NCBI RefSeq assembly: GCF_031583025.1
Contig: NZ_CP134062.1
Span: forward strand, 1,984,001 to 2,048,000
DNA length: 64,000 nt
Reading direction: 5' to 3'
Source: Mycobacterium sp. Z3061
Lineage (GTDB): Bacteria > Actinomycetota > Actinomycetes > Mycobacteriales > Mycobacteriaceae
Both the position numbers and the translations under genes were made by a program. How positions within the stretch are numbered: position 1 is the first letter of the stretch; every line of letters starts with the position of its first letter. Shown here one piece after another: positions 21,421 to 25,651 of this stretch. A model generated the notes under the pieces. The model was not told the origin of the DNA, ran no database searches, and saw nothing but the letters and a program-made list of their open reading frames with translations.

Positions 21421-22062
21421 ATGAAACAGATGGCCAAGAAGGCGGTGACTCCCGGGCCGCGCGACGAGCGCGGGGTGCTGCAGGCGCGAATCCTCAACTC
21501 CGCCAGGCAGGAATTCGCCACGCACGGCTGGGCAGGAACGACGATCCGGGCCGTCGCCCGCACCGCCGACGTAGACCCGGCGCTGGTGTATCACTACTTC
21601 GGCTCCAAGGAGCGCCTGCTGGACGCGGCGACGGACCCGCCGGCCAAGTGGCTGGAAACCGTCGCGCAGACATGGGCCACGCCCCGCGACGAGTTGGGCA
21701 CCCGCCTGGTCCGCACCGTGCTCGGCGCCTGGGCAGACGACGAGATCGGTCCGGTCCTGCGCGCCGTGGTGCTTACGGCCGCGCACGACGAGCGCACCCG
21801 GGAAAAGCTGCGCGCGGTGGTCGAGCGCAGCCTCATCGGCGGTTCGACGCTGGGTACCGACGAGACGGATCGGCTGCGGCGCAGCGGGTTGATCGCCAGT
21901 CAGCTGATCGGCTTCGCCCTGATCCGCTTCATCTGGAAAATCGAACCGGTGGCTTCGATGTCCGAAGAGGACGTGGTAGCCGCCGTCGCGCCCAACATTC
22001 AGCGGTACATCGACGGAGACGTCGTCGCCAGGCCGTCCAGCACCGGCGGCAGCGGTTCCTGA
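21421..22062 (+). CDS. TetR-family regulator
   Basis: 213 aa. HTH at residues 20-66 (LQARILNSARQEFATHGW, IRAVARTADVDPALVYHYFGSKERLL) is canonical. The C-terminal domain resembles the group with a TetR_C_17-like helix bundle (RLVRTVLGAWADDEIGPVLRAVV). Divergent from glgP by 148 bp. Its last 64 bp overlap the 3' end of the helicase gene on the other strand, so its target could be glgP or itself; no link with the helicase promoter is visible. Confidence 0.9.
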   Translation: MKQMAKKAVTPGPRDERGVLQARILNSARQEFATHGWAGTTIRAVARTADVDPALVYHYFGSKERLLDAATDPPAKWLETVAQTWATPRDELGTRLVRTVLGAWADDEIGPVLRAVVLTAAHDERTREKLRAVVERSLIGGSTLGTDETDRLRRSGLIASQLIGFALIRFIWKIEPVASMSEEDVVAAVAPNIQRYIDGDVVARPSSTGGSGS

Positions 22063-24275
22063 TGGACAACGCCGAGGCGCTGAGTCGCGCGGGTGAGGGC
22101 GACGTAGAGTTCGGCGGCGCCGCGAGGGCCGTCGGCCAGGATCCGCTGCGGATCCACCACCAGAACGGCGTCGAACTCCAGCCCCTTGGTCGCTGACGGC
22201 AGCACCGCGCCGGGGACACCGGGTGGCCCGATCACCACGCTGGTGCCCTCGCGGGATCCCTCGTCACGCACGAAATCGTCGATGGCAGAAACTAATTGGC
22301 TTGCATCTACCCGTCGTGACCACGGCGGGGCGCCGCACGCGCGGACCGACTCGGGCGCCACGACGTCGGGTGCGAACTCGGCGAGCAACGCCGCGGCGAC
22401 GGCCATGATCTCCGCCGGCGTGCGGTAGTTCACCGTCAGCGACCGGTAAACCCAGCGGCCGGGCACATAGGGCCGCAGCATCGCATCCCAGGACGTCGCA
22501 CCGGCCGCGGACCGTCGCTGCGCGAGATCGCCCACTACGGTGAAGGATCTGGCCGGGCAGCGACGCATCAAGACCCGCCAGTCCATTTCGGACAGTTCCT
22601 GCGCTTCGTCGACCACCACGTGCCGATATGTCCAATTCCGGTCCACCGCAGCGCGTTCCGAGAGTTCACGCAGATCGCGTTCGACGAATCGGTCGGCGAG
22701 GTCCTCGCCGTAGAGCAGGTCCTGGGCGAGCAACTGGTCTTCGTCGTCCATCAGGTCTTCGCGGCTGACCATCAGGTCCAGGACGCCCGCCGCATAGGCT
22801 GCCTCTTCGGCTTGTTCCTGTGCGGCAGTCTTTCTGGCGAGTTCCTCGGCTTCTTTGTTGACGCCCAACAGATCCACCAGCTCGTCCAGCAGGGGCACAT
22901 CGGATACCGTCCACGCGTCACCGCTCTCGCGCCACAGCGCGGAATCGGCACCCGCCGCGCGCAGCCTCTCGGGCGACTCGTACAGCGCGGACAGCAGCGC
23001 GTCCGGGGTCAGGATCGGCCAGAGCTCATCGAGCGCGGCGGCGAACGCGGCGTTGTCCGCGAGTTCTTCGATCAGCTCCTCGCGAAGCTTCTCCCACGCG
23101 TTGCGGTCCGACCGGGTCAGCCAGCCGCGGCCGATCTTGCCGATCGCCCGCTCGGTCAAGACCCACGTGACGATGTCGGTGAACGCGGCGCGGGCCGCGT
23201 TGTGCGGCAGCCCGGTGGCGCGCGCCTCCTCCCTGGCCCACTGCGCCGTCTCGGCGTCGATGCGCAGGGTGACATCGGACAGCTTGATGAGCAGCGGATC
23301 CTCCGGCAGCCGTTGGTAGTCGGCGATCGCGGCGGCGAGCACATCGAGGATCTGCAGTGAACCCTTGAGGCGCGCGGCGGTTGGCTCATCCTCGGCCGTA
23401 ATGTGCAGACCGGGAACCAGATCGCCGACCGTCATGAACACCACGGTGGATTCGCCGAGTGAGGGCAGGACGCGGCTGATGTGGTCCAGGAATGCCGGAT
23501 TGGGACCGATGACGAGCACGCCGTGGCGTTCCATCCGCTCGCGCTGGGTGTAGAGCAGATAGGCGACGCGGTGCAGCGCAACCACCGTCTTGCCGGTGCC
23601 GGGACCGCCCTCGATCACCAGCACCCCGGAGTGGTCCAGACGGATGATGGCGTCCTGCTCGGCCTGGATGGTTGCCACGATGTCGCGCATCCCATCACCG
23701 CGGGGGGCGTTGATCGCGGCGAGCAGGGCGGCGTCGCTTGAGCTTTCGCGCTTGTCTCCGTCGTCCGCGCGGCCGAGCACCTCGTCGGTGAAGTCGACGA
23801 CGCGACGCCCGCGGGTGTGGAACTGGCGGCGCCGCCGGATGTCCTCGGGGTTGGCTGCCGTCGCGGTGTAGAACGGACGCGCCGCCGGCGCGCGCCAATC
23901 GATCAGCACCGGTTCGTACTCGTTATCCTCATCGAGCAGGCCGATGCGCCCGATATAGGACCGGTTGCCCGAAATACCATCCAGCCGACCGAAACACAGC
24001 CCGTCGTCGGCGACGTCGAGGCGCTTCATCCGCCGCGCCAGCGCCCGCACTTCGACATCGCGATCCATCGGCGTTTCGCCGTCGCCCCGCAAGGCGGCGC
24101 TGTACCTCGATTTCGCCTGCGCCCGTTCGGCGTCGAGCCGGGCATAAAGGCCGGTGACGTAGTCCTGTTCGAACCGCAGTTCGTCATCGAAGCTGGTAGC
24201 TGACTCCCGCAATTCACCCCCCAATCCATGGACCCCGACCCACGCGGCGGCGTCCGGCCAGCAATTGTGCGGCAT
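21999..24275 (-). CDS. HelD/HelR-type RNA polymerase-associated helicase-like protein
   Basis: 758 aa from ATG 24275, with AAGG 8 bases upstream; homology begins nearer DDELRFEQDYVTGLYARLD, so a TTG at 24212 is an alternative. UvrD-superfamily 1A domain split by an insertion: Walker A EGGPGTGKTVVALHR, motif II VVDEAQELSEMDWR, motif III VGDLAQRRSAAGATSWD, late motif ALTRATQRLGVV. The N-terminal coiled coil (AERAQAKSRYSAAL) matches the secondary-channel arm of HelD. Such proteins bind RNA polymerase and recycle it; the HelR branch displaces rifamycin. A 19-bp element in the leader matches the rifamycin-associated element, so I favour HelR. Confidence 0.85.
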   Translation of the reverse strand: MPHNCWPDAAAWVGVHGLGGELRESATSFDDELRFEQDYVTGLYARLDAERAQAKSRYSAALRGDGETPMDRDVEVRALARRMKRLDVADDGLCFGRLDGISGNRSYIGRIGLLDEDNEYEPVLIDWRAPAARPFYTATAANPEDIRRRRQFHTRGRRVVDFTDEVLGRADDGDKRESSSDAALLAAINAPRGDGMRDIVATIQAEQDAIIRLDHSGVLVIEGGPGTGKTVVALHRVAYLLYTQRERMERHGVLVIGPNPAFLDHISRVLPSLGESTVVFMTVGDLVPGLHITAEDEPTAARLKGSLQILDVLAAAIADYQRLPEDPLLIKLSDVTLRIDAETAQWAREEARATGLPHNAARAAFTDIVTWVLTERAIGKIGRGWLTRSDRNAWEKLREELIEELADNAAFAAALDELWPILTPDALLSALYESPERLRAAGADSALWRESGDAWTVSDVPLLDELVDLLGVNKEAEELARKTAAQEQAEEAAYAAGVLDLMVSREDLMDDEDQLLAQDLLYGEDLADRFVERDLRELSERAAVDRNWTYRHVVVDEAQELSEMDWRVLMRRCPARSFTVVGDLAQRRSAAGATSWDAMLRPYVPGRWVYRSLTVNYRTPAEIMAVAAALLAEFAPDVVAPESVRACGAPPWSRRVDASQLVSAIDDFVRDEGSREGTSVVIGPPGVPGAVLPSATKGLEFDAVLVVDPQRILADGPRGAAELYVALTRATQRLGVVHQEPLPPVLDGLATTSPSMYR

Positions 24276-24280
24276 GAACC

Positions 24281-24299
24281 GGGCCTTGCCGCAAGCCCC
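24281..24299 (-). promoter_or_regulatory. Rifamycin-associated element (RAE) in the helicase leader
   Basis: Read on the minus strand the sequence is GGGGCTTGCGGCAAGGCCC, an inverted repeat of CTTGC/GCAAG with G/C flanks. It is identical to the RAE as I remember it from actinobacterial rifamycin-resistance genes. It begins about where transcription should start from the TATAAC box at 24307-24312 and ends 5 bp before ATG 24275. Confidence 0.75.
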
Positions 24300-24306
24300 G
24301 GGGGCC

Positions 24307-24312
24307 GTTATA
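24307..24312 (-). promoter_or_regulatory. Putative -10 box of the helicase gene
   Basis: TATAAC on the minus strand, 7 bp upstream of the RAE. No clear -35 hexamer at 16-18 bp spacing. Confidence 0.5.
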
Positions 24313-24366
24313 AGGTGAAAAGGGCTTGAAAAGGCTTTGCGCGCAACCTCGTCTTCTGGAGTCCCC

Positions 24367-24777
24367 ATGACCGGACCGCCGCCCGACAACCCGTACGGTG
24401 GCTATCAGCCAGCCGGGGAATATCCGCCGTATCAGGGCGGCGGGTACCAGCCGCCACCACCGCAAGGACCTTACGGCGGCTACCCACCGCCTTCGCCGCA
24501 GCCTTATGGCGGGTTCTCGCCGCAGGGGCCCTATGGGCAGCCGATGAAGCCCAACAATTACCTGGTGTGGTCCATCATCACCATCTTCCTGTGCATGATC
24601 CCGGGCATCGTGGCCACGGTGTATTCCAGCAAGGTCGACGGGCTGTGGGCACAGGGGCGATGGGCGGAGGCGAGCAGGTCCGCGAACACGGCCAAGACGT
24701 GGGCCATCGTGGGAACGGTCCTCGGTGGGCTGCTCTGGTTGTCCTACCTGGGCAGGCTGGGCTCTCACGTCTCGTAG
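24367..24777 (+). CDS. CD225/dispanin-family two-helix membrane protein
   Basis: 136 aa from ATG 24367 with GGAG upstream. Residues 1-58 are a Pro/Gly/Tyr-rich cytoplasmic tail with PYGGY repeats. Helix 1 (YLVWSIITIFLCMIPGIVAT) and helix 2 (WAIVGTVLGGLLWLSYL) flank the conserved AxAxxSxxAK-type loop (GRWAEASRSANTAKTW). Bacterial CD225 proteins relate to IFITM/dispanins and are thought to affect membrane properties. Divergent from the helicase gene by 91 bp; tail-to-tail overlap of 13 bp with the TetR gene. Confidence 0.85.
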   Translation: MTGPPPDNPYGGYQPAGEYPPYQGGGYQPPPPQGPYGGYPPPSPQPYGGFSPQGPYGQPMKPNNYLVWSIITIFLCMIPGIVATVYSSKVDGLWAQGRWAEASRSANTAKTWAIVGTVLGGLLWLSYLGRLGSHVS

Positions 24778-25331
24778 TCAGTCGCCGCCAGCCGGGCGAT
24801 GGCGTCGGCCAGCGCGTCGGTGCTCAGCGGGGTGCCGGTAGCCAGCGGATGCAGCATGGCGCCGTCGAGAAACACCGCGATGGCGTCCGCGGCCCGCCGT
24901 CCGACCCGCGGCTCCAGCAGTGCGACGACGCCCTCGTTCCACACCCGGGCCAGGGGCCGCAATTCGTCCCGGTAACTCGCCGCCAGATACAACTCGTTGA
25001 GCGTCCGGTACCGGTCGTGGTCGGCCAGGTAGTCGGCGGTGAGCCGGGCCAGCACGGCCGGCAGGTCGGAGTCCGCGTCCAGTTCCTGCCGCCACTGCTC
25101 CAGGTGCTCGGCCGAGGTGGTGGCGGCATGCGCCAGGGCTGCTTCCCGCAGCTCGCCCAGGTCGCTGAAATAGTAGGTCGTCGACCCCACCGGGACGTCC
25201 GCCTCGGCTGCCACCAGGCGGTGTGTCAGCTGGCCGAGTCCGCGGCGGGCGATCACCCTGGTAGCCGCTTCGACGATCGCCTGACGGCGGCCGGCCGGGT
25301 CGCGCGGCCGGCGTTCGGGCGCGGAGCTCAA
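24765..25331 (-). CDS. TetR-family regulator of the SMR pump (Rv3066-like)
   Basis: 188 aa if it starts at the TTG that overlaps the stop of the pump gene (TTG 25331, stop 25330-25328). HTH in about residues 15-60 (RRQAIVEAATRVIARRG, LVAAEADVPVGSTTYYFSDLGEL). M. tuberculosis has the same pair, mmr (Rv3065) with Rv3066, and the latter represses the pump in response to cationic drugs. The TGTACA-rich operator before the pump gene is its likely site. Confidence 0.85.
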   Translation of the reverse strand: MSSAPERRPRDPAGRRQAIVEAATRVIARRGLGQLTHRLVAAEADVPVGSTTYYFSDLGELREAALAHAATTSAEHLEQWRQELDADSDLPAVLARLTADYLADHDRYRTLNELYLAASYRDELRPLARVWNEGVVALLEPRVGRRAADAIAVFLDGAMLHPLATGTPLSTDALADAIARLAATDYET

Positions 25332-25651
25332 TGCGCACCGCCGAGGTTGAGCGTGACGACCCCGCCGATGATCAGTCCGACACCGATCAGCTTTGCCGCC
25401 GACAGGGGTGAGCCGAGAAACGCCACGGCGATGAACACGATCACGGCCGTCCCGATCGCAGACCACAACGCGTAGGCGACATCGGTCTGCATCCCGCGCG
25501 AGATGGACAGCGCCAGCAGGGCAAATGACACCGCGTAACCGGCCAGGCAGATGACGGTCGGCCACAGCCGGGTGAAACCCTCGGTGCTCTTGAGCAGGCT
25601 CGTTGCCGCTACCTCCGCGAAGATGGCGACCAATAGGAATAGATATGCCAC
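25328..25651 (-). CDS. mmr: Small multidrug resistance pump (Mmr/EmrE type)
   Basis: 107 aa, four helices, with the SMR signature: membrane Glu in AIFAEVAATSLLKSTEGF (catalytic Glu13), WPTVICLAGYAVSFALL, YALWSAIGTAVIVFI and the GVGLIIGGVVTLNL helix. Exports quaternary cations and dyes using protons as a dual-topology dimer. Matches Rv3065 (Mmr). First gene of a two-gene operon; a GGGAG site lies 9 bp before ATG, right beside the 28-bp operator. Confidence 0.93.
   Translation of the reverse strand: MAYLFLLVAIFAEVAATSLLKSTEGFTRLWPTVICLAGYAVSFALLALSISRGMQTDVAYALWSAIGTAVIVFIAVAFLGSPLSAAKLIGVGLIIGGVVTLNLGGAH

What the first reader, a model, noticed from the sequence alone, without database searches (positions are those of the whole stretch)
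24212..24312. HelR-type helicase with an exact rifamycin-associated element in its leader
Seen: on the minus strand a 19-bp inverted repeat GGGGCTTGCGGCAAGGCCC lies between a TATAAC box and the start of a HelD/HelR-like gene. Known: the RAE controls rifamycin-induced resistance genes in actinobacteria, including helR, whose product removes rifamycin-bound RNA polymerase from stalling (sequence recalled, not looked up). Inference: this mycobacterium may carry inducible intrinsic rifampicin tolerance through this locus. AAGG inside the RAE is also the only SD for ATG 24275, so the element may couple transcription start and translation start.
Basis: partly seen in the sequence, partly recalled or inferred. 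Interest (0 to 1): 0.8.

Follow-up and report, generated by a model that had tools for sequence, protein, structure and literature searches.

The report
Twin promoter at rifamycin response element
A mycobacterium carries the known rifamycin-response DNA element in front of a known RNA-polymerase-protecting gene, and comparing many such elements shows a conserved layout: two promoters set back to back around the element, one for the gene and one firing the other way.

Summary
The genome's only other site with at most one mismatch precedes a Rox-like monooxygenase. The helR/RAE pairing is already known. The proposed start ATG 24275 is wrong: it lies inside the promoter; TTG 24212 is likelier. 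TATAAC is not a sense -10 box but overlaps an antisense one.

New here: in 157 de-duplicated RAE leaders (helR, arr, rox, rgt) of Actinomycetes, two -10 boxes flank the RAE symmetrically, each 11 bp from its edge. The sense box is [CT]ANNNT in 153 of 157; the antisense box is TANNNT in 152 of 157 (shuffled mean 1.7, maximum 7). Ten further RAE loci, seven before rph, have both. The sense box fits a mapped M. smegmatis arr start; no antisense start was seen mapped. The published sense promoter P1 is not conserved.

I read the RAE as a regulator site at the hub of two competing promoters. The regulator and the role of the antisense promoter are inferred.

The parts
24281..24299 (-). RAE, GGGGCTTGCGGCAAGGCCC, at the -35 place of both promoters
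   Evidence: column profile of 157 leaders
24264..24269 (-). sense -10 box CACAAT of the helR promoter, 19 nt after TTGCGG (24294-24289)
   Evidence: sense [CT]ANNNT at this spacing in 153 of 157 leaders; fits the start mapped for M. smegmatis arr as quoted in PMC7882622
24257..24257 (-). predicted helR transcription start (7 nt after the -10 box)
   Evidence: inference from M. smegmatis arr
24311..24316 (+). antisense -10 box TAAGGT, 19 nt after TTGCCG (24286-24291, + strand)
   Evidence: antisense TANNNT at this spacing in 152 of 157 leaders, shuffled mean 1.66, maximum 7 of 1000 rounds
24323..24323 (+). predicted antisense transcription start
   Evidence: conserved GG at this place in 137 of 157 leaders; inference
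21999..24212 (-). helR, 737 aa from TTG 24212
24217..24222 (-). GGGGGG, possible SD for TTG 24212
   Evidence: sequence; inference
24367..24777 (+). divergent CD225-domain gene that the antisense promoter could also serve in this genome
   Evidence: Pfam PF04505, 78 bits; neighbour kept in 1 of 80 related loci

Best explanation
This is the rifamycin-inducible promoter of helR. Shown by comparison: the palindromic RAE sits at the -35 place of two back-to-back promoters, a sense one (CACAAT) for helR and an antisense one (TAAGGT) pointing away; the same geometry stands in front of helR, arr, rox, rgt and rph genes. Inferred: a dimeric drug-responsive protein, still unknown, binds the RAE, because the positions other than 4, 10 and 16 are nearly invariant, ends included, which polymerase contacts alone do not explain. 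Inferred: polymerase on the antisense promoter, which has the better -10 box, excludes polymerase from the helR promoter and keeps it low; rifampicin, through the RAE factor, moves initiation to the sense side. HelR then displaces rifampicin from polymerase and frees stalled polymerase (published for relatives).
For: Two -10 boxes 11 bp from either RAE edge in 157 de-duplicated leaders: antisense TANNNT 152, sense [CT]ANNNT 153; both kept in each of four gene families. The surrounding columns are near random, the three middle bases of the antisense box are free, and GARAGT-GG follows it. Ten loci not used in those counts all have both boxes. The antisense box is kept where the upstream gene is co-directional, so no gene uses it (4 of 4 Nocardia loci examined; one annotated Streptomyces plasmid). 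Mapped arr start fits the sense box. TANNNT promoters give more transcript than VANNNT in M. smegmatis (PMC6448022 section 19). HelR identity.
Against: No antisense start has been seen mapped; no rifampicin data for this species. A symmetric site does not by itself say how a factor would favour one side. Pure competition cannot induce. In B. subtilis, bringing the two promoters so close that they overlap abolished induction (PMC12802891 section 48), so that mechanism does not carry over directly. SigA promoters of mycobacteria show no -35 consensus, so calling TTGCNG a -35 box is tentative. In 5 of 157 leaders the antisense box is not at 19 nt: in three it is one base off (L069, L091, L226), in two it is absent (L128, L218). 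A sigma-70 pattern scan of 24100-24500 found nothing (it allows only 16-18 nt spacing). 25 of 80 close helR relatives have no RAE in the fetched DNA.
Confidence: 0.5

Rival explanations
1. The RAE is simply the operator of an unknown rifampicin-responsive factor acting on the sense promoter; the antisense promoter is real but has no part in induction.
For: Near-invariant 19-bp palindrome; reviews propose an unknown factor (PMC10719064 and PMC12802891, passages); loss of half the RAE abolishes induction (quoted in PMC10719064).
Against: It leaves unexplained why the antisense box is kept at one spacing in 152 of 157 leaders, also where it points into the 3' end of a co-directional gene.
Confidence: 0.3
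2. No factor: polymerase alone is the sensor, as in the B. subtilis helD alarm, with rifampicin arresting polymerase on the stronger antisense promoter.
For: B. subtilis helD has a stronger antisense promoter, also with a 19-bp spacer, and rifampicin relieves it (PMC12802891 sections 45 and 48).
Against: Here the promoters share the RAE, so an arrested polymerase should block the sense side. A pure mutual-exclusion model gave no induction in 200000 random parameter sets (it assumes the same drug-bound fraction at both promoters). Invariant GGG and CCC ends are unexplained.
Confidence: 0.12
3. The RAE acts as an RNA hairpin or attenuator in the leader.
For: It is a palindrome, and its right arm can also pair with TGCCGCA downstream.
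Against: Positions 4 and 16 could pair in only 32 of 157 leaders; of 24 leaders with C at position 10 only two have a pairing G at the downstream partner. The mapped arr start lies downstream of the RAE.
Confidence: 0.03
4. One reading: TATAAC is the helR promoter box and the RAE couples transcription start to translation start at ATG 24275.
For: TATAAC, AAGG and ATG are present.
Against: Sense TANNNT at the TATAAC place in 2 of 157 leaders. The ATG is out of frame or absent in close relatives, and the same ATGCCGCA occurs in the rox leader, where it cannot start rox.
Confidence: 0.03

Closest known systems
helR/helD with RAE in M. abscessus (MAB_3189c), M. smegmatis (MSMEG_2174) and S. venezuelae (SVEN_6029)
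   Same: Class II HelD with a 19-bp palindromic RAE upstream, as described in PMC10719064 and PMC8655204 (passages); rifampicin induction and resistance are published there, not tested here.
   Different: Those texts describe two sense promoters and no antisense one. Here the conserved second promoter is antisense, and a sense TANNNT that fits P1 is in 1 of 157 leaders.
B. subtilis helD rifampicin alarm of two convergent promoters
   Same: A sense promoter for helD paired with an antisense promoter whose spacer is 19 bp (PMC12802891 section 45).
   Different: Promoters face each other and lie apart there, without an RAE; here they point away from each other and overlap at a palindrome. PMC12802891 says actinobacterial RAE genes are not of its kind.
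arr, rox, rgt and rph genes under RAE
   Same: The same RAE with both -10 boxes at the same spacing.
   Different: Other gene products: rifamycin-modifying enzymes rather than a polymerase-protecting factor.

Membership tests
HelR (class II HelD) | Full-length match to curated HelD/HelR models | tested here: met
   HelD_MYCSM 1372 bits (cut-off 1051), motor_HelR_2 1343 (cut-off 1100); motor_HelR (Streptomyces type) 504, under its cut-off of 750
HelR (class II HelD) | PCh loop with acidic tip (E484, D485 in M. smegmatis) | tested here: met
   DDED at 482-485 of M. smegmatis aligns with DDED in the window protein; exact DDED in 61 of 82 rows
HelR (class II HelD) | Removes rifampicin-bound polymerase, confers tolerance | not testable with these tools
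   published for M. abscessus and S. venezuelae (PMC10719064, passages)
HelR (class II HelD) | Groups apart from constitutive HelD in a tree | tested here: inconclusive
   groups with four RAE-bearing M. gordonae/M. asiaticum proteins; no proven constitutive HelD in the tree
Rifamycin-associated element (RAE) | 19-bp palindrome of the known sequence upstream of a rifamycin-resistance gene | tested here: met
   same 19 bases readable from M. smegmatis arr oligos; the 2014 paper was not read
Rifamycin-associated element (RAE) | Needed for induction by rifampicin | not testable with these tools
   no expression data
B. subtilis type dual-promoter alarm | Convergent, separate sense and antisense promoters | tested here: not met
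   promoters are divergent and overlap at the RAE; compare
Rifampin monooxygenase (second RAE gene, L002) | Over the curated cut-off of NF033145 rif_monoox | tested here: not met
   454 bits against 800, on a frame cut by the locus end; over the cut-off of NF005303, named hypothetical protein

The most novel reading that the evidence does not exclude
The RAE is not just an operator but the hub of an orientation switch: polymerase held on a conserved antisense promoter keeps actinobacterial rifamycin-resistance genes (helR, arr, rox, rgt, rph) low, and drug stress flips initiation to the sense side. This would be a divergent, independently built counterpart of the convergent B. subtilis rifampicin alarm.
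Probability: 0.3. Interest if true: 0.85.

Novelty: new variant of a known kind. Interest (0 to 1): 0.6.

Why it matters
How the RAE senses rifamycins is unresolved; PMC12802891 (2026; discussion passage) still says the mechanism remains to be elucidated. A conserved antisense promoter at a fixed distance, in front of five unrelated resistance families, is a concrete part that any mechanism must explain, and it can be tested by 5'-end mapping in M. smegmatis. It also changes the picture of the promoter: the published upstream sense promoter P1 is not a conserved part.

Tried and rejected
Translation-start role of the RAE: rejected. RNA hairpin or alternative stem: disfavoured by the lack of compensating changes. 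TATAAC as sense promoter: rejected. P1 as a general part: a sense TANNNT at the right place is in 1 of 157 leaders, L159, from a close relative of M. smegmatis. The neighbouring TetR as the RAE factor: found beside helR in 1 of 80 related loci. Pure promoter competition: cannot induce in the model. RAE on viruses: 3 contigs matched; none has either -10 box in place, taken as chance. Own-genome sites with 3 mismatches: four of the seven were looked at and lack the boxes. arr in the own genome: none found (PF12120). M. smegmatis itself was not found in 396 genomes, but the pattern used had one base missing, so that search says nothing.

Rows left out before the counts: 172 leaders oriented by gene were cut to 157 by removing those at least 80% alike over 111 flank positions; undeduplicated, 167 of 172 have the antisense box and 170 of 172 a sense NANNNT. 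Ten RAE loci without one of the four reference genes were set aside and reported apart. The listings were cut off ('more matches are not listed'; best 80 of 550). From I fetched 99 listed places, not all; the 24 loci that itself returned from other genomes of the genus (L007-L030) and those up to L036 were not used separately. The five plasmid loci read after (of 34 records) were found with the module itself as query, so their 5 of 5 is not independent. Shuffles kept base content only, not neighbour pairs.

Full report
Observation. In the whole 6.79 Mb genome two sites have at most one mismatch; the sites with three mismatches are at the level of the reversed-pattern control. The second site, C1:156583, is in front of an FAD monooxygenase related to Rox but below the curated rifampin monooxygenase cut-off, on a frame cut by the locus end. 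The genome search found one HelR and no Arr.

The gene. The protein passes HelD_MYCSM and motor_HelR_2. Its best solved relative is M. smegmatis HelD, 6YXU, 1163 bits. The acidic tip of the PCh loop (DDED, M. smegmatis 482-485) is kept. The closest named relative is M. gordonae DSM 44160, 91% identical, so the window comes from a relative of M. gordonae.

Start codon. The rox leader of the same genome has ATGCCGCAAAAT at the same distance from its RAE, where it meets a stop after five codons. In M. gordonae the distance to helR differs by one base, so the ATG is out of frame; the three M. asiaticum leaders have no such ATG. M. smegmatis HelD residue 3 aligns with residue 26 of the ATG-started reading. 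TTG 24212 gives 737 aa.

The module. I collected RAE loci from 80 named relatives, from 198 genomes of the genus (148 with a site of at most one mismatch; the reversed control also hits scattered genomes there) and from 296 genomes of the class (114 with an exact site, in 46 of 114 genera; the reversed control hits three, G377, G439 and G440). 172 leaders were oriented by the gene behind them: helR 95, arr 32, rox 31, rgt 14; 157 remained after removing near copies: helR 85, arr 31, rox 28, rgt 13. Column by column the RAE is nearly invariant except positions 4, 10 and 16 (the last position is C in 91%), and two further blocks stand out, each 11 bp from an RAE edge. Downstream: [CT]ANNNT in 153 of 157, CANAAT in 124, C at the first place in 97%. 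Upstream, read on the other strand: TANNNT in 152 of 157 at exactly 19 nt from TTGCNG, and 155 of 157 if 18-20 nt is allowed. Misses of the antisense box: L069, L091 and L226 (one base off), L128 and L218 (absent). Misses of the sense box: L180, L201, L218, L225. Shuffling the upstream 50 bases gives 1.66 on average and 7 at most in 1000 rounds. Outside the window's genus, in the 49 leaders L177-L238, the antisense box is in 47. The three middle bases are free or nearly so, as in mycobacterial -10 boxes (PMC6448022 section 19: ANNNT/TANNNT, no bias in NNN). Read on the sense strand, the same place gives TANNNT in 2 of 157. After the antisense box comes G-A-R-A-G-T and then GG at the expected start, in 137 of 157. 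Ten RAE loci not used in these counts all have both boxes: seven are rph, one a DrrA-type ABC transporter, one an amidase-like protein, one a rox-like frame that looks broken.

Support for the sense box. In M. smegmatis arr the oligos printed in PMC7882622 (passages read) show the RAE followed by CACAAT ending at -38, and the paper quotes a mapped start at -31, seven bases on. Carried over to the window this puts the helR start near 24257, downstream of ATG 24275.

Antisense promoter. It is kept where no gene can use it. In the four Nocardia loci examined (L043, L048, L065, L068) the upstream gene is a co-directional OpuAC protein (in L043 it ends 46 nt before the RAE). On an annotated Streptomyces plasmid the co-directional hydrolase ends at 2449 and the RAE begins at 2527. 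In the window it could also serve the divergent CD225 gene at 24367, but that neighbour is seen in 1 of 80 related loci. I found no mention of an antisense promoter at the RAE in what I read from the held library. PMC10719064 (passages) and PMC12802891 (sections 37, 45, 48, 49 and passages) describe two sense promoters and an unknown factor. The primary papers (Spanogiannopoulos 2014, Surette 2022, Hurst-Hess 2022) were not read: a look-up of the last failed and the other two were not tried. The claim of newness is limited to that.

P1. The review places a sense start about 20 nt upstream of the RAE in M. smegmatis. The closest relative in hand (L159, 97% over 145 aa) has a sense TACCCT that fits; no other of the 157 leaders has a sense TANNNT there. 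P1 looks local. I did not obtain the M. smegmatis leader itself.

Mechanism. Shown by comparison: a palindrome at the hub of two back-to-back promoters. Inferred: mutual exclusion, since both would use the same 9 bp; a stronger antisense side, since TANNNT promoters make more transcript than VANNNT in M. smegmatis; and a dimeric factor, since the GGG and CCC ends are kept. Pure competition without a factor gave no induction. In B. subtilis a stronger antisense promoter, also with a 19-bp spacer, silences helD until rifampicin arrests it, but there the promoters face each other and moving them closer destroys the response. So this may work like that alarm but is not a member of it. How the drug would favour one side of a symmetric site is unexplained. 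No expression data exist here for either promoter in this species.

RAE-less helR. Of 80 related loci, 47 have an RAE (at most two mismatches) within 360 nt, 8 have it further upstream, and 25 have none in the fetched DNA. Six of the eight far cases have rgt between RAE and helR (L042, L049, L054, L055, L069, L073), among them N. brasiliensis (RAE with two mismatches), which PMC8655204 (passages) lists as lacking a clear RAE. Of the 25, two follow a rox gene and one follows rgt.

Noticed in passing
L042, L049, L054, L055, L069, L073: helR stands behind an rgt gene with the RAE in front of rgt, so some helR genes called RAE-less (N. brasiliensis, L073) may be under an RAE as second gene of an operon.
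   Followed up: partly
L222:89-1012 (-): An RAE with both -10 boxes stands before a DrrA-type ABC transporter ATPase (TIGR01188, 338 bits, over its cut-off), a possible efflux member of the RAE regulon.
   Followed up: partly
L240:436-1107 (-): An RAE with both -10 boxes stands before an Amidase_2-domain protein, an unexpected neighbour for a rifamycin element.
   Followed up: partly
L087, L089, L107: helR of M. ahvazicum, M. triplex and M. montefiorense has no RAE in the 1500 bases upstream, though the relative M. rhizamassiliense (L098) has one: likely loss.
   Followed up: no
window 21421-22062 (+): A TetR-family gene converges on helR and overlaps its end by 64 bases; this neighbour is seen in 1 of 80 related loci, M. 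gordonae.
   Followed up: partly
window 25328-25651 (-): A small multidrug resistance (SMR, PF00893) protein gene lies near helR.
   Followed up: no
RAE module, 8 bp from either RAE edge (window 24273 and 24307): A G at the -16 place of both promoters is conserved (sense 87%, antisense 91%), symmetric about the RAE and unexplained.
   Followed up: no
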